NCBI RefSeq assembly: GCF_000368565.1
Contig: NZ_KB849543.1
Location: 124,001-188,000, forward strand
Reading direction: 5' to 3'
Source of the DNA: Acinetobacter gerneri DSM 14967 = CIP 107464 = MTCC 9824
GTDB taxonomy: Bacteria; Pseudomonadota; Gammaproteobacteria; Pseudomonadales; Moraxellaceae
Length of the DNA stretch: 64,000 nucleotides
The notes under the pieces were generated by a model that did not search any database, was not told the origin of the DNA, and saw only the letters and a list, made by a program, of their open reading frames with translations. Below, piece by piece: positions 4,140 through 44,635 of the stretch; position 1 is the stretch's first letter; each line of letters begins with the position of its first letter. The position numbers and the translations under genes were made by a program.

Positions 4140-4523
4140 ATGGGATCTGAAAAATACATGCAAGGGCTAAAAATCCGAAAGCAAGTTTTAGGTGAGGAAT
4201 ATGTCAATCAAGCCATCCAAAACATGGATGAGTTTTCAGGACCATTGCAGCAGCTTGTGACGGAATACTGTTGGGGAACGATCTGGAGTGATGAAACTTT
4301 GAGTTTGCAACAACGCAGTTTAATCAATATTGCGATGATCTCCGCGCTGAATCGACCAAATGAATTAAAACTTCATATCAAAGGCGGACTTAGAAATGGT
4401 TTATCTAAAGAACAGATTAGAGCAACGCTGATGCAAGTTGCGATTTATTGTGGAGTACCGGCAGCAGTAGATAGTTTTAAACTTGCTAAACAGGCATTTT
4501 TAGAGTTTGAAGAGCAAGGCTGA
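4140..4523 (+). CDS. Carboxymuconolactone decarboxylase family protein (PcaC-like)
   Basis: A 127-residue single-domain protein of the carboxymuconolactone decarboxylase/AhpD-like family. The core matches PcaC: R-S-L-I-N-I-A-M-I-S-A-L-N-R near residues 60-73, then E-L-K-L-H-I-K-G-G-L-R-N-G and Q-V-A-I-Y-C-G-V-P-A-A. PcaC decarboxylates 4-carboxymuconolactone to an enol-lactone; the other pca genes are absent here, so a lactone decarboxylase or similar role on another ring-cleavage product is more likely. It has a good site (GAGGAGAG) before the ATG, is a one-gene unit ended by a terminator, and shares a promoter motif with the large operon starting at 5571. Confidence 0.8.
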   Translation: MGSEKYMQGLKIRKQVLGEEYVNQAIQNMDEFSGPLQQLVTEYCWGTIWSDETLSLQQRSLINIAMISALNRPNELKLHIKGGLRNGLSKEQIRATLMQVAIYCGVPAAVDSFKLAKQAFLEFEEQG

Positions 4524-4609: not shown

Positions 4610-5416
4610 TTATAAATGGTCAACCTCATCAGCATTGATCAGATGTAAGCGATCAAGCGCATGTTTTTGCTCACTTTGTACAGAAATTTCAGTCAATTTT
4701 GCGGATGTATCGACTAACATTTCAATGATTGTTTCGAGGCGTAATAATTCAAATTGTTCTAAAGAACCGACCACACTGATACTGGTATGTGTTTCTTTTG
4801 AATTCGGTTCAATAAAGATCGGCGTCGCGATCCCTGTTTGCCCCTTATTTAATTCATTGTTCGTTAAACAATAACCATCTTTGCGTATTTGTTTGGCTTG
4901 TTTCAAGATTTCTTCTAATGAATATTCATTTTGGGGATCATATTGAATTTTCTTTTCATATAAATCTTTAATTTTTTTAACACCTTGATAAGACGTTAAA
5001 ATTTTTGCTTGTGCACCTCTAAATAAAGGTAATGGACGACCTCGCCCAAATGAATAATTGAGTGCGTTATTTGGAGAAAGAATATAAGTATTGATGATTT
5101 TATCATCATAAAAAGCACTGACAAATACGGTTAAACCTGTTCTTTGGCTCAATTGCTCAATATAAATTCGTCCTGTACTGAGTACGGGGTCATATTTGCG
5201 CATCATCCAGTCAAGCTCAATGAGTCGTGGACCCAATACATATCCGCCCGGACCGCGTTTTGCAATCAAACCTGCATCACAAAGCTCCTTAAGGTAGCGA
5301 TAGGATGAGGTTCTGGATAGATCATATTCTTCTGCAATCACTTCTGCATCAATCACCAAGCGTTCAGGCGTAAACAAATTTAACACGCTTAATATTCTAG
5401 AAAGGCTGCTGCTCAT
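4610..5416 (-). CDS. IclR-family transcriptional regulator
   Basis: A 268-residue IclR regulator: N-terminal winged helix-turn-helix (about residues 5-65, with L-S-R-T-S-S-Y-R-Y-L-K-E-L recognition helix) and a C-terminal effector domain containing G-R-G-R-P-L-P-L-F-R-G-A-Q-A-K-I. It is divergent from the ten-gene operon at 5571 and very likely controls it together with the PcaC-like gene, since copies of one 18-bp motif occur upstream of both and also right over its own start codon (5418-5435), suggesting autoregulation. The effector-domain signature is shared with the IclR at 43871-44623, so the two are paralogues. Effector unknown. Confidence 0.88.
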   Translation of the reverse strand: MSSSLSRILSVLNLFTPERLVIDAEVIAEEYDLSRTSSYRYLKELCDAGLIAKRGPGGYVLGPRLIELDWMMRKYDPVLSTGRIYIEQLSQRTGLTVFVSAFYDDKIINTYILSPNNALNYSFGRGRPLPLFRGAQAKILTSYQGVKKIKDLYEKKIQYDPQNEYSLEEILKQAKQIRKDGYCLTNNELNKGQTGIATPIFIEPNSKETHTSISVVGSLEQFELLRLETIIEMLVDTSAKLTEISVQSEQKHALDRLHLINADEVDHL

Positions 5417-5570: not shown

Positions 5571-7115
5571 ATGATTGGTGCTGAATATTTAGTCAAAGTT
5601 GCAGCAAATTTGGGATTTGAGTACTGTTTTGCCAATCCAGGGACGACAGAAATTCCTATGGTTGCAGTCATGGATCGAGAAACTCGTATTAAGCCTATTT
5701 TGAGTTTATTTGAAGGTGTGTGTTCAGGGGCTGCGGATGGCTATGGTCGTGTTGCAGAAAAACCGGCATTGACGCTGACCCATCTTGGACCGGGTTTCGC
5801 AAATAGTTTGGCCAATTTGCACAATGCCCGTCGTGCCAATACACCGATTGTGAACATTATTGGTGATCATGCTTCTTGGCATGTCAATTATGATCCACCA
5901 CTTGCAAGCGATATTGAAGCAATGGCTAAAACTGTCTCAGGATGGGTTCGAGTCACAAAAAATGCTGAAAGCATTGGTGCAGATTTGCAGGCAGCGATGC
6001 AAGCTGCATGGCAATCCAAAGGGCAAGTGGCAACTTTGGTGATGCCTATGGATTTTCAGGCAAAAGAAATCATCAATCCTGATTTAAATTTATCGGTAAA
6101 AGCGCCTCAACGTCATTTTATTGCTCAACGAGCAGAGCAAATTGCTGAATTATATAAAGCAGGGAAAAAGCTAGTTTTTATTGTGGGGGATTCTGGTGTC
6201 TATGAAGAAGGACTAAAAGCCGCAGGGCGGTTGGCAAGTTTGGATGGCATCAAAATGTTTGCGGAAACATTTCCACGGATTAGTCATCGAGGGGGTGGGC
6301 TTCCAGATCTAGATCGTCTGCCATATTTCCCAGAAGTTGCAATCGAGATTTTGGATCAATACGACTATGTCGTTTTGGCAGGTGTGATTGAGCCGATTAG
6401 TTACTTTGGTTATGAGGGTATTCCATCTCGTTTAGCTGAACCTGATCGTCTGCTTTTATTGGCAGATGTTGGGGAGGATGTCACTGGCGCTTTAAATACT
6501 TTGGCAGATCAGCTCGAAGCCAAACCATATCACTTGGCTGAGCCTCAAGCGATTGCTATGCCAAATCCGCAAGAAGCTTTAGTTCCCCAATCAGTAGCGG
6601 CTATTTTGGCAAACAATCTTCAAGAAAATTCTATTGTTTCTATTGAAGGTGGAACTTGTGGTTATCCATTTTTTACGGCTTCAAATCATGCAGTTAAACA
6701 TCGTGTTATGACCAATACTGGTGGCGCAATTGGGCAAGGAATCCCTGCTGGTTTTGGTGCGGCTTTGGCTGAACCGGGTACGCGAGTGTATTGCTTACAA
6801 TCTGATGGCAGCGCGCAATATACCATCCAAACTTTGTGGAGTATTGCCCGTTCAAATCTTCCGATCACAATTTTAATTTCTGCAAATCATCGTTATGCCA
6901 TTTTACAAAATGAGTTGCGACGCTTTGGAATTGAAAAATTTAGTGATACGGCACTAGAGCTCACTGAGTTAAATCAGCCCAAGATTGATTGGACCGCATT
7001 ATCTCAAGCTTATGGTATTGCTTCGACGGTTGCTCGTAGCAATGAAGATTTAAACAGAATCTTAAATATGACCAATCAATCACAACAACCTCACTTAATC
7101 GTAATGGAACTATGA
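5571..7115 (+). CDS. Thiamine diphosphate-dependent enzyme, acetolactate synthase/benzoylformate decarboxylase-like
   Basis: A 514-residue ThDP enzyme with the three usual domains. The N-terminal part has F-A-N-P-G-T-T-E (near residue 20), as in the benzoylformate decarboxylase branch, and the activating Glu in L-F-E-G-V-C-S-G-A-A-D-G-Y-G-R. The metal/diphosphate motif is S-D-G-S at 411-414 with Asn439, 27 residues after Asp412; it starts S-D-G instead of G-D-G. It probably decarboxylates a 2-oxoacid, and the aldehyde dehydrogenase immediately downstream (ten-base gap) would oxidise the product. It is the first gene of the operon, with GGAG before the ATG. True acetolactate synthase is unlikely because no small subunit is present. 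Confidence 0.82.
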   Translation: MIGAEYLVKVAANLGFEYCFANPGTTEIPMVAVMDRETRIKPILSLFEGVCSGAADGYGRVAEKPALTLTHLGPGFANSLANLHNARRANTPIVNIIGDHASWHVNYDPPLASDIEAMAKTVSGWVRVTKNAESIGADLQAAMQAAWQSKGQVATLVMPMDFQAKEIINPDLNLSVKAPQRHFIAQRAEQIAELYKAGKKLVFIVGDSGVYEEGLKAAGRLASLDGIKMFAETFPRISHRGGGLPDLDRLPYFPEVAIEILDQYDYVVLAGVIEPISYFGYEGIPSRLAEPDRLLLLADVGEDVTGALNTLADQLEAKPYHLAEPQAIAMPNPQEALVPQSVAAILANNLQENSIVSIEGGTCGYPFFTASNHAVKHRVMTNTGGAIGQGIPAGFGAALAEPGTRVYCLQSDGSAQYTIQTLWSIARSNLPITILISANHRYAILQNELRRFGIEKFSDTALELTELNQPKIDWTALSQAYGIASTVARSNEDLNRILNMTNQSQQPHLIVMEL

Positions 7116-7125
7116 GGACTCAATC

Positions 7126-8613
7126 ATGACTGCAAATGTGATTTTAAAAGAAGTACAGGCTTTTTTAGACCAGCCGAGTCAGCTTTTTATAGGTGGACAA
7201 TGGCAGGATGCCAAAAGCAAACAGACCTTTATGATCGAAAATCCTGCAACAGAACAGTCTTTAGCTGTCGTTGCAAAAGGTAATGCAGATGATGTCGATC
7301 TCGCAGTTGAAGCGGCACAACAAGCCTTTAAATCTTGGCGCTATGAAGCCCCTGTGGTCCGTGCAAAATTGTTAAATAAGCTTGCTGATTTGATTGAGCA
7401 GAAAGCTGAAGAATTGGCACAAATCATAACTTTGGAAAATGGTAAACCGTTATTGTACTCACGTCGTGAGTGTCTAGGAGCGATTAATTTACTTCGATAT
7501 TTTGCTGGGTTTGCGACAAAGATCGAAGGTCGTACCGTGCCTGTATCTACCGCACCTACAGCTAATTTTTTAAATTATACCTTGAGAGATCCCGTTGGGG
7601 TTTGCGCTCTGATCGTACCGTGGAATTTCCCATTGACCATGTGTGTGGGCAAATTAGCGCCTGCAATGGCAGTCGGGTGTACCACCATTTTAAAACCTGC
7701 TGATCAAACACCATTGATTGCAATTCGTTTGATGCAACTTTTTGAAGAAGCAGGTTTTCCTAAAGGCGTAGTCAATCTCGTTACTGGCTCTGGACGAGAT
7801 GTGGGAGAACCACTGAGTTCACACATGAAAGTCAATAAAGTGACATTTACAGGCTCTACCGATGTTGGTAAATCCATTGCCCAACAAGCCACTTCTAATA
7901 TGAAACGTGTGACTCTCGAATTGGGTGGTAAATCTCCAAATATTATCTTGCCAGATGCTGATATAGATAAAGCAGTTGCAGGTGCAGCAAGCGCGATTTT
8001 TTATAACCAAGGTCAAGTGTGTACAGCAGGTTCACGACTCTATGTGCATGAAAGCATTTTAGATGAAGTATTGGAAAAATTGAAAATTGCTGCACAGTCG
8101 ATGACCATCACAAATGGTCTAGATGAATCTTCTACGATGGGTCCACTCGTTTCAAAACGTCAATATGAAACAGTGATGAGATATATCGAACGTGCTCAAG
8201 AAGATGGTGCCGAGTTGATTGTCGGCGGTCAACGTCCAGAAGGATTGGAAAAAGGGTATTACGTACAACCGACCATTTTCCTTGATAAAGACGAGAAAAC
8301 GTGTATCGCAAAAGAGGAAATTTTTGGACCAGTCTTAACAGTTATGCCGTGGACAGATATTGATGATCTCGTTGAACGAGCAAATAACTCCGTATATGGC
8401 TTGGCGGCAGGAATTTGGACCAAAGATCTTGCAAATGCACACACGATCGCAGCACGTTTAGAGGCAGGATCCGTTTGGATTAATTGTTATAACGTTGTCG
8501 ATCCAGTTTCTCCATTTGGTGGCTATAAACAGTCAGGATGGGGACGTGAAATGAGCCATGATGTGATTGAAGCATATACAGAAACCAAAAATGTCTGTGT
8601 AAATTTAGTTTGA
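7126..8613 (+). CDS. NAD(P)-dependent aldehyde dehydrogenase
   Basis: A 495-residue aldehyde dehydrogenase of usual length. The catalytic general base Glu265 (E-L-G-G-K-S-P-N) and nucleophile Cys299 (G-Q-V-C-T-A-G-S-R) are both present, as is the nucleotide-binding F-T-G-S-T-D-V-G-K block. It is closest in style to broad-range betaine/benzaldehyde-type dehydrogenases. It follows the ThDP enzyme by ten bases, so the pair most likely converts a 2-oxoacid to the one-carbon-shorter acid through an aldehyde. A second dehydrogenase of a different subfamily closes the operon at 14963. Confidence 0.9.
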   Translation: MTANVILKEVQAFLDQPSQLFIGGQWQDAKSKQTFMIENPATEQSLAVVAKGNADDVDLAVEAAQQAFKSWRYEAPVVRAKLLNKLADLIEQKAEELAQIITLENGKPLLYSRRECLGAINLLRYFAGFATKIEGRTVPVSTAPTANFLNYTLRDPVGVCALIVPWNFPLTMCVGKLAPAMAVGCTTILKPADQTPLIAIRLMQLFEEAGFPKGVVNLVTGSGRDVGEPLSSHMKVNKVTFTGSTDVGKSIAQQATSNMKRVTLELGGKSPNIILPDADIDKAVAGAASAIFYNQGQVCTAGSRLYVHESILDEVLEKLKIAAQSMTITNGLDESSTMGPLVSKRQYETVMRYIERAQEDGAELIVGGQRPEGLEKGYYVQPTIFLDKDEKTCIAKEEIFGPVLTVMPWTDIDDLVERANNSVYGLAAGIWTKDLANAHTIAARLEAGSVWINCYNVVDPVSPFGGYKQSGWGREMSHDVIEAYTETKNVCVNLV

Positions 8614-8644
8614 AAATGAATGTATTACTTAAAAGGATGTTGAA

Positions 8645-9439
8645 ATGAATCTCGAATTACAAGATCGCGTTGCTATTGTTACTGGCGGTGGAATGGGGAT
8701 TGGTAAAGAAGTCGCAAGACTACTTTCTCAAGAAGGTTGTAAGGTTGTTGTCTGTGCTCGTCGTATGAGTTATTTGCAACAAGCAGCGCAAGAAATTTCA
8801 GAAGAAACAGGCAATGAAGTATTGGCATTGACTTGTGATACGACCGATATGGCAACGGTTCAAGAGATGGTCAATAAAACCGTCGAAAAATTTGGTCGTA
8901 TTGATATTTTGGTCAATGGTGCTGCTGCGCCATCAGGTGTAGTACGTAATGATATTGAATTTGCAGAAGATCATGAATTATTGGGTGATTTAGATACCAA
9001 AGTGATTGGTTATTTCCGCTGTGCAAAAGCTGTAGTTCCTCATATGAAGAAAAATGGTTTTGGTCGCATTATCAATATCGGTGGCTTAACAGGTCGTGGC
9101 AGTAAAGTGATGTCAGGCATGCGCAATTTGGCAATTGTGCATATGACTAAAACACTTTCAGACCAACTTGGTCCAAATGGAATAACTGTTAATTTGATCC
9201 ATCCGGGTGTCGTCGATACACCTCATATTGAAGAGCTTTATGAGCGCGAAGGAATTAAACAAAACAAAACTCCAGAACAAGTTCGACAAGGCTATATCGA
9301 CAATACCCCGATTCGTCGCACCTTAGCACCGATTGAAATGGGTTATCTCATCGGATTCTTGGCATCTCCTAAAGCTGGTGCAATCACTGGGGAATCTATT
9401 GGTATTGATGGCGGTTTGACACGCGGTATCTTTATCTAA
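8645..9439 (+). CDS. SDR-family protein lacking the YxxxK catalytic pair
   Basis: A 264-residue short-chain dehydrogenase fold. The Rossmann motif T-G-G-G-M-G-I-G-K is intact near residues 13-21 and D-I-L-V-N-G-A-A replaces the usual NAG. The segment that normally reads Y-x-x-x-K before the H-L-T-K stretch reads S-G-M-R-N-L-A-I-V-H-M-T-K, so both the catalytic Tyr and Lys appear to be absent (Ser and Asn at those places). The C-terminal G-I-D-G-G-L block is normal. It may therefore be a non-oxidoreductase member, for example a lyase-, isomerase- or decarboxylase-like enzyme, or use another acid/base. Fifth-gene-or-earlier position in an aromatic-type operon suggests a pathway step. Confidence 0.8.
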   Translation: MNLELQDRVAIVTGGGMGIGKEVARLLSQEGCKVVVCARRMSYLQQAAQEISEETGNEVLALTCDTTDMATVQEMVNKTVEKFGRIDILVNGAAAPSGVVRNDIEFAEDHELLGDLDTKVIGYFRCAKAVVPHMKKNGFGRIINIGGLTGRGSKVMSGMRNLAIVHMTKTLSDQLGPNGITVNLIHPGVVDTPHIEELYEREGIKQNKTPEQVRQGYIDNTPIRRTLAPIEMGYLIGFLASPKAGAITGESIGIDGGLTRGIFI

Positions 9440-9466
9440 CAGTCCAAGTAATAAAGGAGGTTGCTC

Positions 9467-10504
9467 ATGTCGAACGGAACGATTTTAGTGGCAACAGCGG
9501 GGCAGGCGGTGATTCGCTCTGGGGATGATGGAAAAACTTGGCATCGCTTAGGTGTAGGTCAAGCCATTGAGTTCGATGCGATTACACGTTCGCTATCCCA
9601 AGACCCTGTTCACCATGAAGTTAGTTATGCTGGTACAGATGTTGGATTGTGTGTCAGTAAAAACTGTGGCGGATTGTGGGAGATTGTTGATTCGCCATTC
9701 AATGGTGAAACGGTCTGGAAAGTCGCAGTTGATCCAAAAAACAATCAACGTATTTTTGTGGGAACAGGAGCACCATCTAGAGCAGTTTTATGGCGCACAT
9801 TGGATGGTGGCAAAACTTGGACTCGTGCCAATGTTGAGATTCCTGAGTTCTGTGCAGGGGTAAATCGACCACGATTATTGGCTTTTGCCTATGATCCAAC
9901 GGATGCAGATCAGTTATGGTTTGGTCTAGAGGAAGGGGGCTTATTCCATTCAACGGATGGTGGTGGAAATTGGCAGCGAGTCGATGATCGTCTACTTTGG
10001 GACTTCAATTCCGATATTCATAGCATCGCGGTATTGCCAAATCATGGTCAAAAAGTCGTGATCGTGCTCTGTGTAAACGCAATTTATCGTAGTGTTGATA
10101 ATGGCGAAACTTGGACAGGAATTGTTGGTAAAGAGCAATTTGATTTGTATTACGTTCGGGCGATGTCGGTTCACCATGCTGCCGAAGATACCGTATTTGT
10201 CAGTATCTCAGATGGGACACCAGGAAGTACCAGCAAAATTTTGCGTTCTAAAGATGCTGCTCAAACTTGGGAAATCCTACCTTTGCCAGTTCAACCCAAT
10301 TCTTGTATTTGGGCGATTCAGCAAAATTTTGATGATCCAAATAAAATTGTGATTGGCACAAAATATGGACATTTATTTACTTCTGAAAATGGTGGAAATA
10401 GCTGGATCAAACAATGGCGAGAGTTTAGTGAAATCAGCGATGTGCTGTGGACACCAGCTCGTACAGAAATCAAAGCATTACACCAGTCTGTGATAGAAAA
10501 ATAG
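9467..10504 (+). CDS. Asp-box (BNR/Ycf48-like) beta-propeller protein
   Basis: A 345-residue protein built from Asp-box repeats. At least six S/T-x-D/N-x-G-x-T-W-like boxes are readable: S-G-D-D-G-K-T-W near the N-terminus, T-L-D-G-G-K-T-W, S-T-D-G-G-G-N-W, S-V-D-N-G-E-T-W, S-K-D-A-A-Q-T-W and S-E-N-G-G-N-S-W, plus a degenerate S-K-N-C-G-G-L-W. That spacing predicts a six- or seven-bladed propeller. There is no signal peptide or membrane segment, so it should be cytoplasmic, unlike sialidases or Ycf48. The ATG is chosen because AAAGGAGG lies six bases upstream. No function is known to me; its operon position suggests an enzyme, such as a lactone or isomer-acting one, or an assembly factor. 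Confidence 0.78.
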   Translation: MSNGTILVATAGQAVIRSGDDGKTWHRLGVGQAIEFDAITRSLSQDPVHHEVSYAGTDVGLCVSKNCGGLWEIVDSPFNGETVWKVAVDPKNNQRIFVGTGAPSRAVLWRTLDGGKTWTRANVEIPEFCAGVNRPRLLAFAYDPTDADQLWFGLEEGGLFHSTDGGGNWQRVDDRLLWDFNSDIHSIAVLPNHGQKVVIVLCVNAIYRSVDNGETWTGIVGKEQFDLYYVRAMSVHHAAEDTVFVSISDGTPGSTSKILRSKDAAQTWEILPLPVQPNSCIWAIQQNFDDPNKIVIGTKYGHLFTSENGGNSWIKQWREFSEISDVLWTPARTEIKALHQSVIEK

Positions 10505-10512
10505 GAGCGCGT

Positions 10513-10971
10513 ATGAATATTAAAGTGATTCGTACCCATCTATCGCTTTTTGTCAGTGATCCAGAATATTCGGCGAAATGGTATGCCGATGTACTAGGAA
10601 TGGTCGAACATGCCCGTGGTGCACAGTGGATAATGATGAGTTTTGGTGAAAAGCATCATGATATTGCTTTAATCAAAGCTCCCGAAGGCGCACAGCAAGG
10701 TGGTCTTGGCTTACAGCACTATGGGATTGAAATAGATGGGACATTTGAAACATTGCAGCGCTTACACGGCATGTTGCTTGATAAAGGCGTACAAATCGTA
10801 AAAACAACCGATCATGCTGTTGGAAATGGATTGTATTTCAATGATCCAGATGGAAATCGACTTGAATTCTTTTTAGAAACGGTACATGACAATCAACAGG
10901 CGATTGATCTGTTTAGAGAAACCTGTGCCCCAAGTAATCCAATTGAAATTCCTCCTATTTTTGAGAAATAA
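10513..10971 (+). CDS. VOC-family protein, single-domain extradiol dioxygenase-like
   Basis: A 152-residue vicinal-oxygen-chelate protein. Residues line up with type I extradiol dioxygenases: His9 and His69 (L-Q-H-Y-G-I-E-I) and Glu118 (G-N-R-L-E-F-F) as metal ligands, and His49 in H-H-D-I-A-L at the place of the catalytic base. It is only one VOC module pair long, shorter than BphC-type enzymes, so a dimeric enzyme or a glyoxalase-like isomerase is also possible. It starts at an ATG nine bases after the propeller gene with GGAG upstream. Next to an FAD hydroxylase and alpha/beta hydrolase it is a candidate ring-opening enzyme. Confidence 0.78.
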   Translation: MNIKVIRTHLSLFVSDPEYSAKWYADVLGMVEHARGAQWIMMSFGEKHHDIALIKAPEGAQQGGLGLQHYGIEIDGTFETLQRLHGMLLDKGVQIVKTTDHAVGNGLYFNDPDGNRLEFFLETVHDNQQAIDLFRETCAPSNPIEIPPIFEK

Positions 10972-10972
10972 C

Positions 10973-11575
10973 ATGAAAAAAGCAAATTTTGAAAATTATC
11001 ACATTCGTAAATGGTTTAGTTTTACCGAAGAAACTTTAGCCAATGAAACAGGTCAATTGGCTGATGGAGAACCCGTTTATAAATATGCAATTGCGGCGGC
11101 TATTCATAATCTATATGCAGGACGATTTTCAGAAGATTTAAGTGAGTTGATTGAGCATTCTCCTGATTTGGGGCGAGAGTTTGGTCGCCGAATTCAAGAA
11201 CTTGCCAATGGTCGTGAAATTGTCAGTTATGGGAAATCTATTTTGGTTGGCATGAACTGTGAATATGAACATGGCAATGCATTTTTAACCAATCCTGCGG
11301 CAGATCCAATCCGTGTGGCTTTAGGCGGTGGTAAATCATGGGTTCCTTCAACAGGAAAACGTGGTGTAGCAGGAACAATTATTGATGTGCCTTTAGCACA
11401 TAAAGATGCACTTTATGTACGCTCACATTATGACAGTATTTCCCTATCTTTTAATGATGGACCGGGAAATGATGAACTGATTATTATCTGGGCTTTTGCA
11501 ACGCGAGGACGTTTGCATGCTCGATTAGGTGGATTAAAAGCTGAAGAAATTCAGGGTGAAAATGGTCTTATCTAA
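10973..11575 (+). CDS. AA_synth-family protein of unknown function
   Basis: A 200-residue protein resembling the so-called amino acid synthesis family (PF06684), a group without a settled activity. Visible conserved blocks are P-V-Y-K-Y-A-I-A-A-A near residue 27, L-Y-A-G-R-F-S-E-D-L-S-E-L, S-Y-G-K-S-I-L-V-G, E-Y-E-H-G-N-A, A-L-G-G-G-K-S-W-V-P-S, a V-P-L-A-H-K-D-A block and V-R-S-H-Y-D-S. The conserved Lys, His and Glu residues suggest an enzyme. The start ATG is two bases after the VOC stop, with GAG-rich upstream sequence, so the two are tightly coupled. Earlier in-frame starts lie inside the VOC gene and were not chosen. Confidence 0.75.
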   Translation: MKKANFENYHIRKWFSFTEETLANETGQLADGEPVYKYAIAAAIHNLYAGRFSEDLSELIEHSPDLGREFGRRIQELANGREIVSYGKSILVGMNCEYEHGNAFLTNPAADPIRVALGGGKSWVPSTGKRGVAGTIIDVPLAHKDALYVRSHYDSISLSFNDGPGNDELIIIWAFATRGRLHARLGGLKAEEIQGENGLI

Positions 11576-11584
11576 GTAAAAGTT

Positions 11585-11612
11585 TTGAGGAGAAACCCAT
11601 TTTTCTCTTCAA
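11585..11612 (+). other. Intercistronic hairpin
   Basis: Arms TTGAGGAGAAA (11585-11595) and TTTCTCTTCAA (11602-11612) pair with one mismatch in the 72-base gap before the alpha/beta hydrolase. No T run follows, so it is probably an mRNA processing or stabilising element and not a terminator. Confidence 0.4.
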
Positions 11613-11647
11613 ATTGTTCATTCCATGTTTGAAGAGGTTTTGCCCAA

Positions 11648-12490
11648 ATGAACCATTCGCAAAGTCATTATTTAAAGTCCCGTGATGGACTAAATTTGCA
11701 TTATTTAACTTGGGGCGATCGTGCATCTCCTGCGATTATTTTATTACATGGCTTAAGATCATACGCACTCACTTGGGCACCATTGGCTGAAATACTCTCC
11801 CAGCAATTTTATGTTATCGCACTAGATCAGCGTGGTCGTGGCTTAAGTGATTGGGCTGAAAATTATGAAACATATCAAACCAAAGTGTATGTCGAAGACT
11901 TAGAAGATTTGGTGAAATGTGAAAATCTAGAAAAGTTCATCATTGTTGGGCATTCATTAGGCGGGACAAATGCACTCGAATATAATCGCCTGCACCCTGA
12001 AAAAGTAAGCGCTTTGATTATTGAAGATATTGGTCCGGGTTCATCTATACAAGGGGATGGTGCAGAACGAATTCGACGTGAAATGCAGAATACGCCTTTG
12101 GAATTTGCTACTTGGCAACAAGCCATCGATTTTTGGAAAAAATTAAGACCTTTGATTGGTCAAGAAGGGATTCAATCTCGTGTTGAAAATACGCTTGTTG
12201 AGAAAGATGGAAAAATTATTTGGAAACATGATCAGCAAGGTATTGCAAAAGCTCGATTGAATATCGCATCAACGGATCTTTGGCCTGCCGTAGAGCAAAT
12301 TGATTGCCCGACATTATTTATCAAGGGTGGGTTATCTGATTTTTTACCTTCAACAACGCTAGAAGCAATCAGATTTAAAAAACCTGATATTGAGTTTATA
12401 GAAATTGCAGATGCATCTCATTATGTTCATGATGACCAAGCAGAAATGTATAACCAAGCCGTAATTCAATTTTTAAGCAAAATAGACTGA
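11648..12490 (+). CDS. Alpha/beta hydrolase
   Basis: A 280-residue alpha/beta-fold hydrolase. The nucleophile elbow G-H-S-L-G-G, oxyanion-hole H-G-L-R-S, the acid in the L-S-D-F-L-P loop and the C-terminal D-A-S-H-Y-V-H-D histidine are present. It looks like the MhpC/BphD/lactonase group, so hydrolysis of a C-C bond in a ring-cleavage product or of an enol-lactone are the main options. It sits between the AA_synth gene and the FAD hydroxylase in one operon. There is no signal peptide. The family does not settle the substrate. Confidence 0.85.
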   Translation: MNHSQSHYLKSRDGLNLHYLTWGDRASPAIILLHGLRSYALTWAPLAEILSQQFYVIALDQRGRGLSDWAENYETYQTKVYVEDLEDLVKCENLEKFIIVGHSLGGTNALEYNRLHPEKVSALIIEDIGPGSSIQGDGAERIRREMQNTPLEFATWQQAIDFWKKLRPLIGQEGIQSRVENTLVEKDGKIIWKHDQQGIAKARLNIASTDLWPAVEQIDCPTLFIKGGLSDFLPSTTLEAIRFKKPDIEFIEIADASHYVHDDQAEMYNQAVIQFLSKID

Positions 12491-12522
12491 ATTTAAAATA
12501 GACGTAATAGGGAAAATTGACC

Positions 12523-14133
12523 ATGAGAAACGAGCAAACGGATGTTGTGATTGTCGGTGGTGGACCAAATGGTATCGCACTGGCTCATTACATGGGCATT
12601 TATGGAATCAAAACGATTGTTTTAGAAGTGAACCCAGATATTTTACCTTATCCCCGTGCAGTGGGTATGGATGATGAAGCGCTTCGCGTTTTACAGACAA
12701 CTGGGGTGACTGATGAAGTCGTTAAAGACATGATTCACAACGTTCCATTACGTTATTTTAATGCTGCGGGTGTTTGTTTTGCTGAGGTCAAACCGACTGT
12801 TGCTGATTATGGTTGGCCCATGCGAAATATTTTCATGCAACAACTCTTTGAAAAAAGTATGCGTGAACTGCTAACAAAATATTCAAATGTTGAATTGCGT
12901 TCAGGGCACGAAATGCTTGATCTCGAACAAAACGATCAAGCGGTTCAGGTACAAGTCAAAGATCAAAATGGTGAAACTTATCAGATCACTGCACGTTACC
13001 TGATTGGTGCAGATGGCGGAAGATCTGGCGTACGTAAAAAAGTCGGTATCCAACTTGAAGGATTGACCCATCCTCGAAAATGGGTCGTTGTTGATGCTGC
13101 AAATGATACATTAGATGCACCTTATACAGCTTTGCATGCTGATCCTAGTCGTCCTTTTGTCTGTATTTATCTTCCGTACCAACAACGACGTTGGGAGTTT
13201 ATGCTCTTTGAAGGTGAAGACGAGGAGCAGATGTGCCAAGAGGAAAATATTCGAAAGCTCATTCGTACACATATCGGCGATGATGTTGATCAATTAAACA
13301 TTATTCGCATTCGTGCTTATACCCATAATTCACGAGTTGCCAACCGCTTTATCGAAGGTCGAGTCGTTTTAATTGGCGATGCCGCACATATTACACCGCC
13401 GTGGGCAGGTCAGGGTTTAAACTCAGGCATTCGTGATGTTGGAAATATTGCTTGGAAACTGGCTGCTGTCATCAAGGGCTATGCTGCTGAAAAAATCATC
13501 GAAAGCTATGATGTTGAGCGACGTGGGCATGCGACTGATTTGGTTGCACTCGCGGATAATATGGGCATGGTCTTGGGGCTGACAAATCCATTGGTGGCAG
13601 GAATCCGTGACTGGATTTTCCAAGCATTTAACAATGTTGATGCATTACGCAGTCATTTAGTTGAATTTAAATTTAAACCGAAACCATTTTTAAGCAAAGG
13701 GCTGGTATATCACCCACGTAATAGCGTCCAAAAAGACGATATTGTCGGTAAGATTTTTATCCAACCTGATGTTCAGACCGTTGATCAGCAGCGTATAAAA
13801 TTTGATGAAGTTTTGGGTAAATGGTATTCCGTTATTGCATTTAGAAAAAATCCAATGCAAGGATTATCAAGTGAAATGCAACAATTTTGGCGCGACCGAG
13901 AAACCAATTTTATCCAAGTTAATCGTTCAAAAAGTGGTTTGACTCGAAACCAACCTTTGCTTTCTGGTGAAAATGTAATCAGTGTTGAAGATATAGATCA
14001 TAAACTTGAAAATTGGTTTGTAGATGCGCGTGACGAGGTTGTGATTGTACGTCCTGATCGTTTTATTGCTGCGACATGTTCTATCGAACAACTGAATGCA
14101 ACTTTGGAGAAGCTCGCATGCCAACTCCAGTAA
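12523..14133 (+). CDS. FAD-dependent aromatic hydroxylase (MhpA-like)
   Basis: A 536-residue group A flavin monooxygenase. The FAD motif V-I-V-G-G-G-P-N-G lies near residue 10, the second FAD motif G-D-A-A-H-I-T-P-P-W-A-G-Q-G near residue 285, and the D-G-G-R-S-x-V-R block in between. Length and the C-terminal thioredoxin-like domain match 3-(3-hydroxyphenyl)propionate hydroxylases. It should hydroxylate a phenolic or heteroaromatic acid using NAD(P)H and O2. The ATG at 12523 is used because an upstream TTG has no better ribosome site. The downstream hydratase gene starts inside its last codons. Two further MhpA-like hydroxylases are at 40248 and 46227. Confidence 0.88.
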   Translation: MRNEQTDVVIVGGGPNGIALAHYMGIYGIKTIVLEVNPDILPYPRAVGMDDEALRVLQTTGVTDEVVKDMIHNVPLRYFNAAGVCFAEVKPTVADYGWPMRNIFMQQLFEKSMRELLTKYSNVELRSGHEMLDLEQNDQAVQVQVKDQNGETYQITARYLIGADGGRSGVRKKVGIQLEGLTHPRKWVVVDAANDTLDAPYTALHADPSRPFVCIYLPYQQRRWEFMLFEGEDEEQMCQEENIRKLIRTHIGDDVDQLNIIRIRAYTHNSRVANRFIEGRVVLIGDAAHITPPWAGQGLNSGIRDVGNIAWKLAAVIKGYAAEKIIESYDVERRGHATDLVALADNMGMVLGLTNPLVAGIRDWIFQAFNNVDALRSHLVEFKFKPKPFLSKGLVYHPRNSVQKDDIVGKIFIQPDVQTVDQQRIKFDEVLGKWYSVIAFRKNPMQGLSSEMQQFWRDRETNFIQVNRSKSGLTRNQPLLSGENVISVEDIDHKLENWFVDARDEVVIVRPDRFIAATCSIEQLNATLEKLACQLQ

Positions 14134-14894
14134 ATGATCAAGTGATAAAAAATTTATTAGATGCCCGCCTACACAATCGAAAAGTTGAAACTTCACAGTT
14201 TTCATCTATAGAAATGCAGCAAGCTTATGAGATTCAACAGCGTTTAATCGCAGGGTATCTCAAACAAAATCAAGCGAAACACAGCGGTTGGAAGGTCGCT
14301 TTATCTGGTGCACCTGCCCAACATAAATATGCAATTGATGAGCCTGTATATGGTCGATTAACCACTGATATGCAACTGAACACAGGCGATACGATCTACT
14401 GTTCTCAAGATGAATTGCCAAAATTTGAGATCGAACTTGCTTTTCGATTGAAGCAGGATTTGCTCGCTCAGCAAATATATACAGACCAGTCACTTATCCA
14501 AGCGATTGATGAGGTTATTCCTGCTTTAGAAATTGCCAATGTGCGTTGGCAAGATTGGAATTTTAGTTTGGGGCAATTTATCGCGGATAATTCTGCTGCA
14601 TCAAAGTATGTTTTAGGCAAGCCATTAAGCATGACACTTGATGAAGTGATGGCAAATATTGAGATAGAGCAAAGTAGTCATGCGCTTGTCCTGACATTTT
14701 CAGAGCAAGACAATGCTCTAAAAAATTATTTATGGCTGGTCCGTAAATTATTATCCCAAGGGATGACTTTAAGCGTAGGTGAAATTATTTTGACGGGTTC
14801 ACTGATTCGACCTTTAAATATGGATCGTGCTAGCTACGAAGTACAATTGTTTGGGCAGACATTATCGATTGAAATCGCCAATGCAGTAAGCTGA
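14118..14894 (+). CDS. 2-keto-4-pentenoate hydratase-like protein
   Basis: A 258-residue member of the MhpD/XylJ hydratase and 4-oxalocrotonate decarboxylase group. Family blocks K-V-A-L-S-G-A near residue 58, the E-I-E-L-A-F-R strand and the P-A-L-E-I-A-N-V-R-W-x-D-W region with D-N-S-A-A-S are all visible. It probably hydrates a 2-hydroxydienoate to a 4-hydroxy-2-oxoacid. The ATG overlaps the previous stop by 16 bases, a strong sign of coupling. No partner aldolase (MhpE type) is in this operon, so the product may go to the ThDP decarboxylase instead; that is inference. Confidence 0.85.
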   Translation: MPTPVNDQVIKNLLDARLHNRKVETSQFSSIEMQQAYEIQQRLIAGYLKQNQAKHSGWKVALSGAPAQHKYAIDEPVYGRLTTDMQLNTGDTIYCSQDELPKFEIELAFRLKQDLLAQQIYTDQSLIQAIDEVIPALEIANVRWQDWNFSLGQFIADNSAASKYVLGKPLSMTLDEVMANIEIEQSSHALVLTFSEQDNALKNYLWLVRKLLSQGMTLSVGEIILTGSLIRPLNMDRASYEVQLFGQTLSIEIANAVS

Positions 14895-14962
14895 TTTGCA
14901 TCAAACAATGATTTTAGTACTCTTGAATATTCAAAATAAAAACTCATGCAGGTAGGGATTAG

Positions 14963-16420
14963 ATGCAATATGAAAATTTAACATTATTACGCTCGCAAGC
15001 CTTTATCAATGGTGAATGGCGAGATGCAGATGATGGCTCCACGCTAGAGGTATTTAATCCAGCAAATGCAGAAAAAATTGCCACTGTACCCAAGATGGGA
15101 AGATCAGAAGCATTGTCTGCTGTAGACGCTGCACAGAAAGCATTTAAAAGTTGGAGTCGAAAAAGTGCCAAAGAGCGTGGTCAGATTTTAAGAAAATGGT
15201 TTGATTTATTGATTGAGCATCAAGATGAATTGGCGACCATTTTGACTTTGGAACAAGGTAAACCTTTATCCGAGGCAAAAGGTGAAATTCTTTATGGTGC
15301 CTCATACCTAGAATGGTATGCAGAGGAAGCCAAAAGAATTTATGGAGATATTATCCCATCTCCAGGAAATGATCGGAAAATTTTGGTAAATAAACAAGCA
15401 ATTGGGGTGTGTGCTGCGATTACCCCTTGGAATTTTCCAAATGCAATGATTACTCGTAAAGTGGCTCCAGCTTTGGCAGCAGGTTGTACGATCATTGTGC
15501 GTCCTGCATCTCAAACACCTTTTTCAGCATTTGCAATCGCAGCATTGGCTGAGCAAGCAGGCATACCTAAAGGGGTATTTAATGTAATCACTGGATCATC
15601 AAGTGAAATAGGTCAAGTTTTGACAGAAGATGATCGAGTAAAAAAATTTAGTTTCACAGGTTCTACAGAAGTCGGCAAAAAACTCATTGCGCAATGTGCT
15701 TCAACAGTTAAAAAAGTTTCCATGGAACTTGGTGGAAATGCGCCTTTTATTGTTTTTGATGATGCCGATCTCGATGGTGCTGTAAAAGCAGCGATTGCAT
15801 GTAAGTTTAGAAATGCAGGACAAACCTGTGTTTGCGCCAACCGACTTTATGTCCAATCTGGGATTTATGACACGTTTGTAGAAAAGTTATCAGTGGCTGT
15901 TCAGGGCTTAAAAATAGGCAATGGACTCGATCAAGGAATTGATTTTGGTCCAGTGATAGATGCGTCAGCGATTAAAAAAGTGGAAGAGCATATTTCTGAT
16001 GCGGTATCTAAAGGCGGAGATATTGTATTAGGTGGACATAAACATCATTTAGGTGGATTGTTTTTTGAACCAACGATTATTCGTAATGCTACGCAAGCAA
16101 TGAAAGTGGCCAAGGAAGAAACATTTGGACCATTAGCGCCTGTGTTTAAGTTTGAAACTGAGCAAGAGGTGATTGACTATGCAAATGACACCGAGTTTGG
16201 TTTAGCAGCTTATTTTTTCACTAAAGATTTAGGTCGAGCGATGCGTGTTTCCGATGAATTGGAATACGGTATGGTCGCACTCAATACCGGTTTATTATCC
16301 AATGAAGCTGCACCATTTGGCGGAGTGAAACAGTCTGGATTGGGCAGAGAAGGATCAAAGTATGGGATTGAAGATTATTTAGAAATTAAATATTTTTTAA
16401 TGGCTGGTTTGACTGACTAA
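14963..16420 (+). CDS. NAD(P)-dependent succinate-semialdehyde-type dehydrogenase
   Basis: A 485-residue aldehyde dehydrogenase of the GabD subfamily: catalytic Glu255 in E-L-G-G-N-A-P-F, and Cys289 in G-Q-T-C-V-C-A-N-R, the double-Cys signature seen in succinate-semialdehyde dehydrogenases. Length matches GabD. It would oxidise succinate semialdehyde or a related omega-oxo acid such as glutarate semialdehyde. It is 68 bases behind the hydratase and is the last gene of the operon, ended by a terminator at 16466. Its presence suggests that the pathway ends in a dicarboxylic semialdehyde. Confidence 0.88.
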   Translation: MQYENLTLLRSQAFINGEWRDADDGSTLEVFNPANAEKIATVPKMGRSEALSAVDAAQKAFKSWSRKSAKERGQILRKWFDLLIEHQDELATILTLEQGKPLSEAKGEILYGASYLEWYAEEAKRIYGDIIPSPGNDRKILVNKQAIGVCAAITPWNFPNAMITRKVAPALAAGCTIIVRPASQTPFSAFAIAALAEQAGIPKGVFNVITGSSSEIGQVLTEDDRVKKFSFTGSTEVGKKLIAQCASTVKKVSMELGGNAPFIVFDDADLDGAVKAAIACKFRNAGQTCVCANRLYVQSGIYDTFVEKLSVAVQGLKIGNGLDQGIDFGPVIDASAIKKVEEHISDAVSKGGDIVLGGHKHHLGGLFFEPTIIRNATQAMKVAKEETFGPLAPVFKFETEQEVIDYANDTEFGLAAYFFTKDLGRAMRVSDELEYGMVALNTGLLSNEAAPFGGVKQSGLGREGSKYGIEDYLEIKYFLMAGLTD

Positions 16421-29287: not shown

Positions 29288-29399
29288 CATATTGTTTTTC
29301 AAAAATAGATTCAATAAATATCGTTTGTTACATTGCTTGAAACGGACAAAAAACCCAGTCGTAAAATTTTACATGGGGATGCTGTCAGGGAGAAAGATG

Positions 29400-30434
29400 A
29401 TGGAACAATTAGCGACACTTGATGACTTACCAAAAAACTATGTAAATCAACTCACCGAATCCAATCTTGTACCACTTTGGCCAAGTTTGAGAAATGTCTT
29501 GCCACCGCAAAAACCTGTTCCTGCAACGATTGAAACAGCTTGGTATTTTAAAGATATCAAACCGCTTTTGCTTGAAGCAGGTGAACTCACGCCGATCGAA
29601 AAAGCTGAACGTCGCGTTTTGGTTTTAGCCAATCCCGGACATGGCTTGGAAAATATGCGTGCAAGTGCAGTGATGTATTTGGGGATGCAGTTGTTGTTGC
29701 CAAACGAATGGGCGCCATCGCATCGACATACTCCAAATGCTGTACGCCTGATTGTAGAAGGTGAGGGGGCATATACCACAGTTGAAGGTCAAAAATGTGT
29801 GATGGAACATGGTGATTTGATCCTGACCCCATCCGGTTTATGGCATGAGCATGGACATGATGGCGATCAGCCTGTGATTTGGTTGGATGTTTTGGATCTG
29901 CCATTGGTTTATTACATGGAAGCTTCTTATGTTCAAGGTGGTGATGTTCAGGAAGTGACCAGTGTCGGACATGCGCATCGCTATGGTGTGGGGATTGCGC
30001 CAACAACAGATTTTGTCCGTGAAAAAAATGCTTATCCGATCATGCGATATTCATGGAAAGAAACCAAAAAGGTTCTACAAGCGATTGCACAAGATCCTAC
30101 GCAAAAAGGTCCTATCTTGGTCAGCTATATCAATCCTGAAACAGGTCAAGATTGTCAAAACATTATCGGTTACTCAGCTTTGATGCTCAAACCGAAGCAA
30201 ACTGTTCAATTGCAAGCTCGATCAACTGCACAGATTTTTCATGTGATTGAAGGTCATGTGCATTTACAAATCAATGCCAAAACATTTGATTTGGATAAGG
30301 CGGATACCGCATGTGCTCCTTGTTTTGCACATATTGATTTAATCAATAATACGGATCAAGAAACCTTTATTTTCATTGCTGATGAATCGCCTTTGCAAAA
30401 GAAATTAGGCCTGTACTCAGTTCGCCCACGTTAA
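29400..30434 (+). CDS. Gentisate 1,2-dioxygenase
   Basis: A 344-residue bicupin. The N-terminal iron-binding cupin has His108 and His110 in S-H-R-H-T-P-N-A-V-R and His149 in L-W-H-E-H-G-H, all matching gentisate dioxygenases. It opens gentisate to maleylpyruvate with O2. Two ATGs overlap; the second, 29400, is used because AGGGAG lies seven bases upstream (29397 is possible). It is the first gene of the unit 29400-33065 with the hydroxylase, isomerase and hydrolase of the 3-hydroxybenzoate/gentisate route. Only the regulator is damaged. Confidence 0.92.
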   Translation: MEQLATLDDLPKNYVNQLTESNLVPLWPSLRNVLPPQKPVPATIETAWYFKDIKPLLLEAGELTPIEKAERRVLVLANPGHGLENMRASAVMYLGMQLLLPNEWAPSHRHTPNAVRLIVEGEGAYTTVEGQKCVMEHGDLILTPSGLWHEHGHDGDQPVIWLDVLDLPLVYYMEASYVQGGDVQEVTSVGHAHRYGVGIAPTTDFVREKNAYPIMRYSWKETKKVLQAIAQDPTQKGPILVSYINPETGQDCQNIIGYSALMLKPKQTVQLQARSTAQIFHVIEGHVHLQINAKTFDLDKADTACAPCFAHIDLINNTDQETFIFIADESPLQKKLGLYSVRPR

Positions 30435-30461
30435 GACAAATTTCAAAATAAGGATATTGTG

Positions 30462-32335: not shown

Positions 32336-32360
32336 AGATTTATTTTATAAGGAAATAGTC

Positions 32361-33065: not shown

Positions 33066-33092
33066 CAACATTGCATGAGTTTGAATGAAATG

Positions 33093-33133
33093 GGTACTCA
33101 ATTTTAATAACAAAAACAATTGAGTACCTTTTT
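33093..33133 (+). terminator. Intrinsic terminator between hydrolase and transporter genes
   Basis: The arms GGTACTCAATT (33093-33103) and AATTGAGTACC (33118-33128) pair perfectly and are followed by five T residues. It separates the gentisate enzymes from the transporter gene, which is on the same strand. Confidence 0.82.
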
Positions 33134-33177
33134 GCTATGGAGAGCAAGTCAGTTGATGAACTGGCTAGGGAATCGTT

Positions 33178-36647: not shown

Positions 36648-36658
36648 TATTCTCATCC

Positions 36659-37585: not shown

Positions 37586-37604
37586 GATTTATTTCTCACC
37601 CAGA

Positions 37605-38390: not shown

Positions 38391-38453
38391 TTTCATATCC
38401 TTTGAAAAAAATCCCCCAATGCTTCGAGCAAAGATTGGGGGGCAAGAGGGAAA

Positions 38454-39296: not shown

Positions 39297-39309
39297 TTTG
39301 ATTCCATCC

Positions 39310-40224: not shown

Positions 40225-40247
40225 ACGATATTCCTTATTTAAAAAAA

Positions 40248-44623: not shown

Positions 44624-44635
44624 GAAATTCTCAGT

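What the first reader, a model, noticed from the sequence alone, without database searches (positions are those of the whole stretch)
5571..16420. Ten-gene IclR-linked operon with an unassigned ring-degradation set
Seen: ThDP decarboxylase-like enzyme, aldehyde dehydrogenase, SDR, Asp-box propeller, VOC enzyme, AA_synth protein, alpha/beta hydrolase, MhpA-like hydroxylase, MhpD-like hydratase and a GabD-type dehydrogenase, tightly packed with short gaps and one terminator. Known: hydroxylase, extradiol-type VOC, hydrolase and hydratase form a classical meta-cleavage route. Missing: no MhpE aldolase or MhpF. Inference: the hydratase product may be decarboxylated by the ThDP enzyme to a semialdehyde, oxidised by the two dehydrogenases, and finished by the CoA-transferase and thiolase upstream. 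I know no pathway with this gene set.
Basis: partly seen in the sequence, partly recalled or inferred. Interest (0 to 1): 0.78.

Follow-up and report, generated by a model that had tools for sequence, protein, structure and literature searches.

The report
Propeller-linked aromatic ring-degradation operon
A ten-gene set that recurs, in nearly the same order, in scattered bacteria from Acinetobacter-like and Pseudomonas genomes to marine genera likely breaks down a still unknown aromatic compound, and it would do so with a propeller-shaped protein and an altered dehydrogenase-like protein that are predicted to be new to such pathways.

Summary
The ten genes are real, intact and packed as described, and not peculiar to this genome. 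The centre of the cassette (SDR, propeller, VOC, AA_synth) is contiguous in 70 of 79 related loci from many proteobacterial genera; in 298 genomes of one Pseudomonas genus the propeller and SDR genes occur, adjacent, in the same 32 and in no other. The VOC protein keeps six extradiol-dioxygenase positions. But the hydrolase is not of the meta-cleavage group, the 'SDR' lacks Ser-Tyr-Lys in 72 of 72 sequences, and the 'missing' MhpE and MhpF lie 19 kb away in the window. Extra propeller-VOC-hydroxylase triplets in three genera that also hold full cassettes tie the propeller to ring opening. Best reading: hydroxylase, dioxygenase and propeller open the ring; hydrolase, AA_synth and SSADH yield succinate; ThDP enzyme and ALDH1 process a 2-oxo acid. 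Every reaction is inferred and the substrate is unknown; flanking genes elsewhere suggest an aryl-alkyl amine or alcohol. I found no description in the papers searched. New variant of a known kind.

The parts
4610..5416 (-). IclR-type regulator, divergent from the operon
   Evidence: ORF; an IclR gene in 66 of 79 loci, directly divergent next to ThDP in 53
5571..7115 (+). ThDP-dependent 2-oxo-acid decarboxylase-like enzyme (named acetolactate synthase by NCBIfam; nearest solved relatives are benzoylformate decarboxylases)
   Evidence: NF005760 617 bits (cut-off 363); PDB 4q9d E 2.6e-28; E48, H71, D412, N439 in 69 of 69 rows
7126..8613 (+). Aldehyde dehydrogenase ALDH1, nearest model phenylacetaldehyde dehydrogenase StyD
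   Evidence: NF045735 609 bits but under its cut-off of 850
8645..9439 (+). SDR-fold protein without the catalytic Ser-Tyr-Lys
   Evidence: PF13561; nucleotide motif kept, Ser-Tyr-Lys absent in 72 of 72 sequences, the window's own and 71 loci
9467..10504 (+). Asp-box propeller, single seven-bladed domain, no obvious signal peptide (by eye)
10513..10971 (+). Single-domain VOC protein with extradiol-dioxygenase residues
   Evidence: PF00903; H9, H49, H69, H101, Y108, E118 conserved (where the numbers are one lower); catechol and homoprotocatechuate dioxygenases among PDB hits, as are FosA proteins
10973..11575 (+). AA_synth (PF06684, formerly DUF1185), family of HcdD and TgnF
   Evidence: 200 bits, cut-off 27; 2qtp and 3byq; PMC7913881 passages
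11648..12490 (+). alpha/beta hydrolase, related among others to (N-acetylaminomethylene)succinate hydrolase
   Evidence: 7c4d, 3bwx, 3kxp (1.4e-21); MenH 91.5 and PcaD 84.6 bits, both under cut-off; S103, D231, H258, Y259 in 64 of 64 rows
12523..14133 (+). FAD-dependent aromatic hydroxylase, MhpA-like
   Evidence: NF004831 738 bits, cut-off 546
14118..14894 (+). Hydratase-like protein of the FAA_hydrolase family (MhpD/HpaH/DmpE)
   Evidence: DmpE 98, HpaH 93, MhpD 89, DmpH 85 bits, all under cut-off; K59, E104, E106, E138 in 53 of 53 rows (numbers one lower there)
14963..16420 (+). Succinate-semialdehyde dehydrogenase (GabD type), ALDH2
   Evidence: TIGR01780 740.7 bits, cut-off 646
4140..4523 (+). 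Carboxymuconolactone decarboxylase-like protein, possibly part of the pathway
   Evidence: PcaC model 140.8 bits, just under cut-off 155.7; a relative in 12 of 79 loci

Best explanation
Window 5571-16420 is a conserved ten-gene cassette that likely encodes the aerobic degradation of a hydroxylated aromatic compound, in which the flavin hydroxylase would add a second hydroxyl, the single-domain VOC enzyme would open the ring in the extradiol manner, and the propeller is predicted to act on the ring-cleavage product. Then (inferred) the alpha/beta hydrolase splits the chain and releases succinic semialdehyde, AA_synth helps the GabD-type dehydrogenase as TgnF is reported to do for TgnE, and succinate enters the TCA cycle. 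The ThDP enzyme is predicted to decarboxylate a 2-oxo acid (an aryl-2-oxo acid before ring opening, or the C5 keto acid made by the hydratase after it) and ALDH1 to oxidise the aldehyde. The SDR-fold protein, lacking Ser-Tyr-Lys, probably does a non-classical step. IclR would control the operon. Shown: gene content, conservation, co-occurrence, kept or lost catalytic residues. Inferred: every reaction and the substrate. In other genomes the substrate likely enters as an aryl-alkyl amine or alcohol.
For: Conservation: of 79 loci (picked by the propeller, the best of 159), propeller 79, VOC 76, AA_synth 75, hydroxylase 73, SDR 72 (71 without an unrelated SDR in L080), ThDP 71, IclR 66, ALDH1-like 64, hydrolase 63, hydratase 52; SDR-PROP-VOC-AAS contiguous in 70 of 79. 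Less dependent on the bait: in 298 genomes of L012's genus the propeller (E 1e-80) is in 32 and the SDR (E 1e-90) in the same 32, adjacent in all, and in none of the other 266; one of the 32 is the centre genome itself. Propeller tied to ring opening: extra PROP-VOC-FMO triplets in L045, L052, L053, L054 (Marinobacterium, Curvibacter, Ideonella); a full cassette lies beside it in L045 and elsewhere in the genomes of L053 (L121) and L054 (L122); the genome of L052 was not searched. Extradiol residues. SSA end: GabD above cut-off; AA_synth-hydrolase pairing also in a trigonelline-type cluster; TgnF link; 3kxp. Entry: aminotransferase 58% or more identical in 23 of 79 loci, ALDH3 62% or more in 41, EutR-like AraC 35% or more in 45 (names).
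Against: No expression, metabolite or enzyme data. The aminotransferase, EutR-like and GMC genes are not near the window's cassette; the best aminotransferase in this genome is 36% identical. The hydratase is absent from L061-L081 and is the least conserved gene (28-39% to the window; 44% in G065). In 15 Pseudomonas loci the hydrolase is not beside AA_synth, though in 5 of them a 53-55% relative lies some kilobases further. SSADH-like genes are in only 21 of 79 loci, and in four of these (L042, L048-L050) at 32-35%, so the SSA end is not universal. The hydrolase also resembles MenH and PcaD. Foldseek ranks GH74 glycosidases second after 3b7f for the propeller, and a propeller fold shows no function by itself. 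VOC relatives include FosA-type transferases.
Confidence: 0.4

Rival explanations
1. Aldolase-free lower pathway: hydratase product 4-hydroxy-2-oxopentanoate is decarboxylated by the ThDP enzyme to 3-hydroxybutanal, oxidised by ALDH1 to 3-hydroxybutyrate, then by the SDR to acetoacetate, and finished by the CoA-transferase and thiolase upstream (220-2189). The gene order ThDP-ALDH1-SDR would then follow the reaction order.
For: ThDP, ALDH1 and SDR are consecutive (ThDP-ALDH1-SDR-PROP-VOC-AAS in 54 of 79 loci); 3-oxoacid CoA-transferase subunit B and an acyl-CoA thiolase family above cut-off upstream.
Against: SDR lacks Ser-Tyr-Lys. ThDP and SDR persist without the hydratase in most of L061-L081. 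CoA-transferase B and thiolase show in none of the 79 loci and adjoin a flavonoid-type cluster here. MhpE/MhpF and HpaI exist in the genome.
Confidence: 0.15
2. Mandelate-like upper pathway: an amine or acid with an oxidised alpha carbon becomes an arylglyoxylate, the ThDP enzyme (benzoylformate decarboxylase-like) gives an aryl aldehyde, ALDH1 an aryl acid, which the hydroxylase, VOC and others degrade.
For: Nearest solved relatives of the ThDP enzyme are benzoylformate decarboxylases, and its E48 and H71 are kept; ALDH1 nearest to StyD; aminotransferase, ALDH3 and EutR-like genes beside the cassette in many genomes.
Against: Only 171 bits against a cut-off of 493 for the benzoylformate decarboxylase model; the SDR cannot be a classical alcohol dehydrogenase; no amine genes beside the cassette in this window. 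Other mandelate-pathway genes were not searched for.
Confidence: 0.2
3. The cassette is part of a flavonoid A-ring pathway like fde of Herbaspirillum or ifc of Variovorax, because such a cluster lies directly upstream in this genome.
For: L086 (G000:C30:115000-124100) holds Phenol_MetA_deg, cupin, Rieske, two-domain VOC, LysR, hydrolase and FAD monooxygenase genes (four of them checked with Pfam, the rest named by eye), the kinds of genes described for fde and ifc (passages).
Against: None of the 79 cassette loci has a close relative of these eight genes within the DNA held: five gave no hit, three only 22-27% matches in 1, 3 and 8 loci.
Confidence: 0.08
4. An N-heteroaromatic pathway (pyridine type), in which the hydrolase splits an (acylaminomethylene)succinate as in vitamin B6 and trigonelline degradation.
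For: Hydrolase related to 3kxp; AA_synth-hydrolase pair shared with the trigonelline-type cluster; SSADH.
Against: An intact extradiol-type VOC and an MhpA-like hydroxylase are not part of those pathways (as recalled); 3kxp is only the third-ranked relative.
Confidence: 0.12

Closest known systems
Mhp 3-(3-hydroxyphenyl)propionate pathway
   Same: MhpA-like hydroxylase, an extradiol-type dioxygenase, a hydrolase and an MhpD-like protein
   Different: Single-domain VOC; hydrolase of another group; no aldolase or MhpF in the operon; propeller, AA_synth, ThDP and SDR-fold genes added
Trigonelline (tgn) cluster of Acinetobacter baylyi (known to me from PMC7913881 passages and recall)
   Same: AA_synth protein next to an alpha/beta hydrolase, with an ALDH, in a ring-opening catabolic cluster of the same genus (cluster identified as tgn-like by recall)
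   Different: There a flavin reductase and an LLM-type monooxygenase; no VOC, propeller, ThDP or SDR in L112
7-hydroxycoumarin (hcd) cluster of Pseudomonas mandelii 7HK4
   Same: Hydroxylase HcdA, dioxygenase HcdB and a DUF1185 protein HcdD in one inducible region (passages)
   Different: No propeller, ThDP or SDR in the passages seen; alcohol dehydrogenase-type reductase and cupin instead
fde / ifc flavonoid A-ring pathways
   Same: FAD hydroxylase followed by a VOC (glyoxalase)-family ring-cleavage enzyme (passages)
   Different: Rieske, cupin and MetA_deg-type genes; not linked to this cassette elsewhere
Homoprotocatechuate (Hpa) pathway (recalled)
   Same: Extradiol cleavage, HpaH-like hydratase, succinic semialdehyde and SSADH
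   Different: No protein of the operon passes the HpaE or HpaH model; HpaI is elsewhere in the genome

Membership tests
Mhp meta-cleavage pathway | MhpA-type FAD hydroxylase | tested here: met
   NF004831 738 bits, cut-off 546
Mhp meta-cleavage pathway | Extradiol dioxygenase with H-H-E ligands and acid-base His/Tyr | tested here: met
   H9, H49, H69, H101, Y108, E118 (one lower): H9 in 67 of 67 rows with a letter (10 gaps), H101 in 76 of 77, the others in 77 of 77; their roles by comparison with XylE, recalled
Mhp meta-cleavage pathway | C-C hydrolase of the MhpC/BphD group | tested here: not met
   BphD 38 of 462 bits, HsaD 52.5 of 400; only 7c4d, 3bwx and 3kxp at E up to 1e-15 in the PDB
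Mhp meta-cleavage pathway | MhpD hydratase | tested here: inconclusive
   89 of 350 bits; hydratase and decarboxylase models score alike; K/E/E/E kept
Mhp meta-cleavage pathway | MhpE aldolase and MhpF in the operon | tested here: not met
   Absent from 5571-16420; present at 35631-37585 in another cluster
Succinate-semialdehyde dehydrogenase | TIGR01780 above cut-off | tested here: met
   740.7 bits, cut-off 646
PF06684 AA_synth / TgnF | Family model above cut-off | tested here: met
   200 bits, cut-off 27
PF06684 AA_synth / TgnF | Stimulates SSA oxidation | not testable with these tools
   Reported for TgnF in PMC7913881 (passages), whose authors could not show a comparable effect for HcdD; primary paper not found in the library
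Classical SDR dehydrogenase | Nucleotide-binding TGxxxGxG motif | tested here: met
   G14, G18, G20 in 73 of 73 rows
Classical SDR dehydrogenase | Catalytic Ser-Tyr-Lys | tested here: not met
   G146, M159 (L in 3) and no YxxxK in 72 of 72 sequences; the 73rd row is an unrelated SDR in L080
Benzoylformate decarboxylase | Equivalog model NF005485 above cut-off | tested here: not met
   171 of 493 bits
Benzoylformate decarboxylase | Catalytic Glu and His of ThDP decarboxylases | tested here: met
   E48 and H71 in 69 of 69 rows; assignment to E47 and H70 of the known enzyme recalled
fde/ifc flavonoid pathway | Linkage of the cassette to fde/ifc-type genes in other genomes | tested here: not met
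   0 of 79 loci with a close relative of the eight upstream genes; flanks of at most 10 kb
BNR glycosidase / Ycf48 | Curated model above cut-off | tested here: not met
   F510_1955 glycosylhydrolase 86.8 of 175; Ycf48 48 of 326 bits
Propeller lactonizing enzyme (CMLE) | Shared catalytic site | tested here: inconclusive

The most novel reading that the evidence does not exclude
A new meta-cleavage route in which a cytosolic seven-bladed Asp-box propeller is the enzyme that turns over the ring-cleavage product, and an SDR-fold protein without Ser-Tyr-Lys has become a non-redox or otherwise unprecedented catalyst, with the AA_synth family as a general helper of semialdehyde oxidation.
Probability: 0.35. 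Interest if true: 0.8.

Novelty: new variant of a known kind. Interest (0 to 1): 0.57.

Why it matters
The cassette occurs in about a tenth of the sampled genomes of one Pseudomonas genus (32 of 298), yet I found no paper that describes it in the library searched. If the reading is right it gives a first enzymatic role to a propeller group now annotated as glycosyl hydrolase, VPS10 or YCF48-related protein (names), a role to AA_synth proteins beyond one report, and a non-classical SDR-fold enzyme, all testable by single deletions in plant-associated Pseudomonas strains.

Tried and rejected
Flavonoid pathway: followed because fde/ifc-like genes lie directly upstream of the window; dropped because the linkage is absent from the 79 other loci. 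Reading P. thivervalensis as evidence for flavonoids: PMC8515041 (passages) reports a naringenin-like cluster in strain SC5, but the flanks held for L012 (another strain of that species) show no such genes. SDR as 3-hydroxybutyrate or hydroxymandelate dehydrogenase: weakened by the missing Ser-Tyr-Lys. Mhp-type hydrolase: rejected. Pyridoxine pathway: considered because of the GMC, aminotransferase and 3kxp similarities, not tested further. Propeller as glycosidase: Foldseek puts GH74 enzymes next after 3b7f; not followed, as curated models stay under cut-off. Promoter scan: 21 sites against 36.1 in shuffles, so uninformative. A first ORF caller chose wrong frames in high-GC loci and was replaced by one scored on codon usage. 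Plasmids: 6 of 72,556 records carry a propeller at E 1e-40, all under 60% identity. A sample of 25 genomes of the genus of G517 (P. citronellolis) has the propeller only in G517 itself. In one search labels for broad families (ALDH, APC, TctC, IclR, SDR, EutR) rest on E 1e-8 and include non-orthologues: the ALDH1 count of 64 contains other ALDHs (54 loci have one between ThDP and SDR within the contiguous run) and the aminotransferase count of 27 contains 4 matches of 29-36%. Profiles used the best hit per locus within 0.7-1.4 of the query length; no rows were dropped afterwards, and the 10 gaps at VOC H9 come, I think, from short gene calls. Paper searches that found no description of the cassette; one search found the PF06684 papers; one search found only PMC7913881.
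Full report
What is there. The window lies in a 4.59-Mb genome, G000:C30:124001-188000; I take it as Acinetobacter from the name of a close protein relative - an inference. Ten + strand ORFs at 5571-16420 are intact and tightly packed, with a divergent IclR gene at 4610-5416. Among the models listed, only three proteins pass a curated cut-off: the ThDP enzyme (NF005760, 'acetolactate synthase large subunit', 617 of 363 bits), the hydroxylase (NF004831, 738 of 546) and the SSADH (TIGR01780, 740.7 of 646).

A conserved cassette. With a propeller alignment as bait, genome contigs gave 79 loci, the best of 159 relatives. SDR-propeller-VOC-AA_synth is contiguous in 70 of 79; the full order ThDP-ALDH1-SDR-PROP-VOC-AAS-ABH-FMO-HYD in 31, and the same without the hydrolase in 15; in 5 of those 15 a hydrolase relative of 53-55% lies further downstream. 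Genera include Pseudomonas, Marinobacterium, Nitrincola, Marinomonas, Amphritea, Pseudomaricurvus, Vibrio, a Methylocystaceae MAG, and, with a diverged form (about 38-70% by gene), Hydrogenophaga, Achromobacter, Janthinobacterium, Burkholderia and Paraburkholderia, where no hydratase was found and a NIPSNAP-like protein (named by eye; 11 loci) or further ALDH genes often follow.

A test that depends less on the bait. In 298 genomes of the genus of L012 (P. thivervalensis), the propeller (E 1e-80) is found in 32 and the SDR (E 1e-90) in 32; the handles are the same, the coordinates adjacent in all 32, and the other 266 have neither at these limits (one of the 32 is the centre genome; the SDR search scored 8 candidates per genome in the rows shown). 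The cassette is patchy elsewhere: propeller in 2 of 149 genomes of the window's genus, in 1 of 369 of the class, the window's own, and in 1 of 25 of the genus of P. citronellolis, the centre itself. Patchiness plus conserved order suggests horizontal spread (inference).

A separable ring-opening module. L045, L052, L053 and L054 carry a PROP-VOC-FMO triplet without the other genes. L045 has the full cassette next to it. I searched the genomes of L053 and L054, two of the three other loci, with AA_synth and found a full Burkholderiales-type cassette elsewhere in both (L121, L122). So the propeller travels with hydroxylase and VOC, which points to a role at ring opening or the next step.

Catalytic residues. 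VOC: H9, H49, H69, H101, Y108 and E118 are conserved, the spacing of the catechol 2,3-dioxygenase ligands and acid-base residues (recalled); extradiol dioxygenases, but also FosA proteins, are among its PDB hits. ThDP: E48, H71, D412, N439 in 69 of 69 rows. Hydratase: K59, E104, E106, E138 in 53 of 53. Hydrolase: S103, D231, H258, Y259 in 64 of 64. SDR: the nucleotide motif is intact, but the Ser and Tyr positions are Gly and Met (Leu in 3), and no YxxxK occurs in 72 of 72 sequences (window and 71 loci); the one row with YxxxK is an unrelated SDR from L080. Its best PDB hit, 6jh7, also shows no YxxxK in the printed alignment.

Hydrolase, AA_synth and SSADH. The hydrolase matches 7c4d (putative esterase), 3bwx and 3kxp, the last being alpha-(N-acetylaminomethylene)succinic acid hydrolase (E 1.4e-21); its best NCBIfam models are MenH (91.5 bits) and PcaD (84.6), under cut-off, and meta-cleavage hydrolase models score far lower. 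PF06684 is found in 20 of 148 genomes of the window's genus; 19 of the 21 matches are not the cassette, and in 17 of those 19 a hydrolase with 23-34% identity to ours lies beside it. The one such cluster whose proteins I read (L112) also has what look like a flavin reductase, an LLM monooxygenase, an ALDH and a transporter, as I recall for trigonelline degradation. PMC7913881 (passages) calls HcdD a DUF1185 protein and its homologue TgnF a stimulator of TgnE-dependent SSA oxidation; its authors could not show a comparable effect for HcdD. PMC2954203 (passages) gives the fold of the family, a chorismate-mutase-like hexamer, without a known function. Together this supports an SSA-releasing end, though SSADH-like genes are in only 21 of 79 loci.

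Entry of the substrate. In other genomes the cassette is flanked by a porin, ALDH3 (41 loci at 62% or more), an aminotransferase (23 loci at 58% or more, 4 more at 29-36%) and a EutR-like AraC (45 loci at 35% or more). One search leaves most of these names under the curated cut-offs (EutR 143 of 319 bits; the aminotransferase passes only PRK07481, a 'hypothetical protein' subfamily, among those listed). In the other genome of the window's genus (G065) the cassette (44-89% identical) sits beside, by eye, an APC transporter, an aminotransferase (58% to that of L012), a EutR-like gene, a deacetylase-like gene and a GMC oxidoreductase. An amine or alcohol that becomes an aldehyde and then an acid fits; the nearest model for ALDH1 and for the Curvibacter ALDH is phenylacetaldehyde dehydrogenase, under cut-off. 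The window itself has no such genes near the cassette, only a transporter nearest to the metabolite/H+ symporters, under cut-off.

Corrections to the finding. MhpE (HMGL-like with DmpG_comm) and MhpF lie at 35631-37585 in a second meta-cleavage cluster, and HpaI is at G000:C31, so a lack of aldolase cannot be argued for the cell. The upstream CoA-transferase and thiolase follow directly on a flavonoid-type cluster (L086), and neither that cluster nor CoA-transferase B and thiolase are linked to the cassette in the loci held.

Papers. PMC11069340: passages and the section on mutants. PMC11303751, PMC8552027, PMC8515041, PMC4440368, PMC7913881, PMC2954203: passages only. The trigonelline primary paper was not found in the library and is cited from recall and from PMC7913881. 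My searches cover only CC-licensed PMC papers, so a description in a subscription journal cannot be excluded.

Noticed in passing
L086 (G000:C30:115000-124100), directly upstream of the window: Flavonoid A-ring type cluster: Phenol_MetA_deg protein, cupin, Rieske, two-domain VOC, LysR, alpha/beta hydrolase, FAD monooxygenase, then CoA-transferase, resembling fde/ifc gene sets (partly named by eye).
   Followed up: partly
window 35631-41807: A second meta-cleavage cluster (aldolase, acylating acetaldehyde dehydrogenase, hydratase-family, hydrolase, BphC-type dioxygenase, FAD hydroxylase) with a TetR-like gene beyond it (by eye).
   Followed up: partly
window 43871-51785: A second IclR-linked set, by eye: VOC, FAH-type hydrolase, FAD hydroxylase, MFS transporter, CoA-transferase A and B, porin. 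The VOC at 44636-45181 seems to have Asn-Gln where the second His ligand is expected.
   Followed up: no
window 29292-34521: Looks like a gentisate-type set (cupin dioxygenase, FAD hydroxylase, GST-type isomerase, FAH-type hydrolase, MFS), named by eye only.
   Followed up: no
window 54587-60705: IclR, two small proteins, ALDH, iron-type dehydrogenase (maleylacetate reductase-like) and an intradiol dioxygenase-like gene; looks like a hydroxyquinol pathway, by eye.
   Followed up: no
window 61177-62886: Sulfatase-like gene (by eye); sulfatase-like genes also lie near cassettes in 7 of 79 loci, which may hint at phenol sulfates.
   Followed up: partly
L084 9448-10581: Class II deacetylase-like gene (by eye) between the amine genes and the cassette in G065, possibly freeing an N-acylated amine.
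   Followed up: no
window 11584-11613: Weak hairpin (12 pairs, 3 G-C) in the 72-base gap between AA_synth and hydrolase genes; the only + strand terminator-like site between genes of the operon in the scan.
   Followed up: no
L063, L076, L080: Propeller-AA_synth-hydrolase without a VOC gene, in Bradyrhizobium and Achromobacter, with TctC-type receptors nearby: perhaps a different pathway sharing this sub-module.
   Followed up: no
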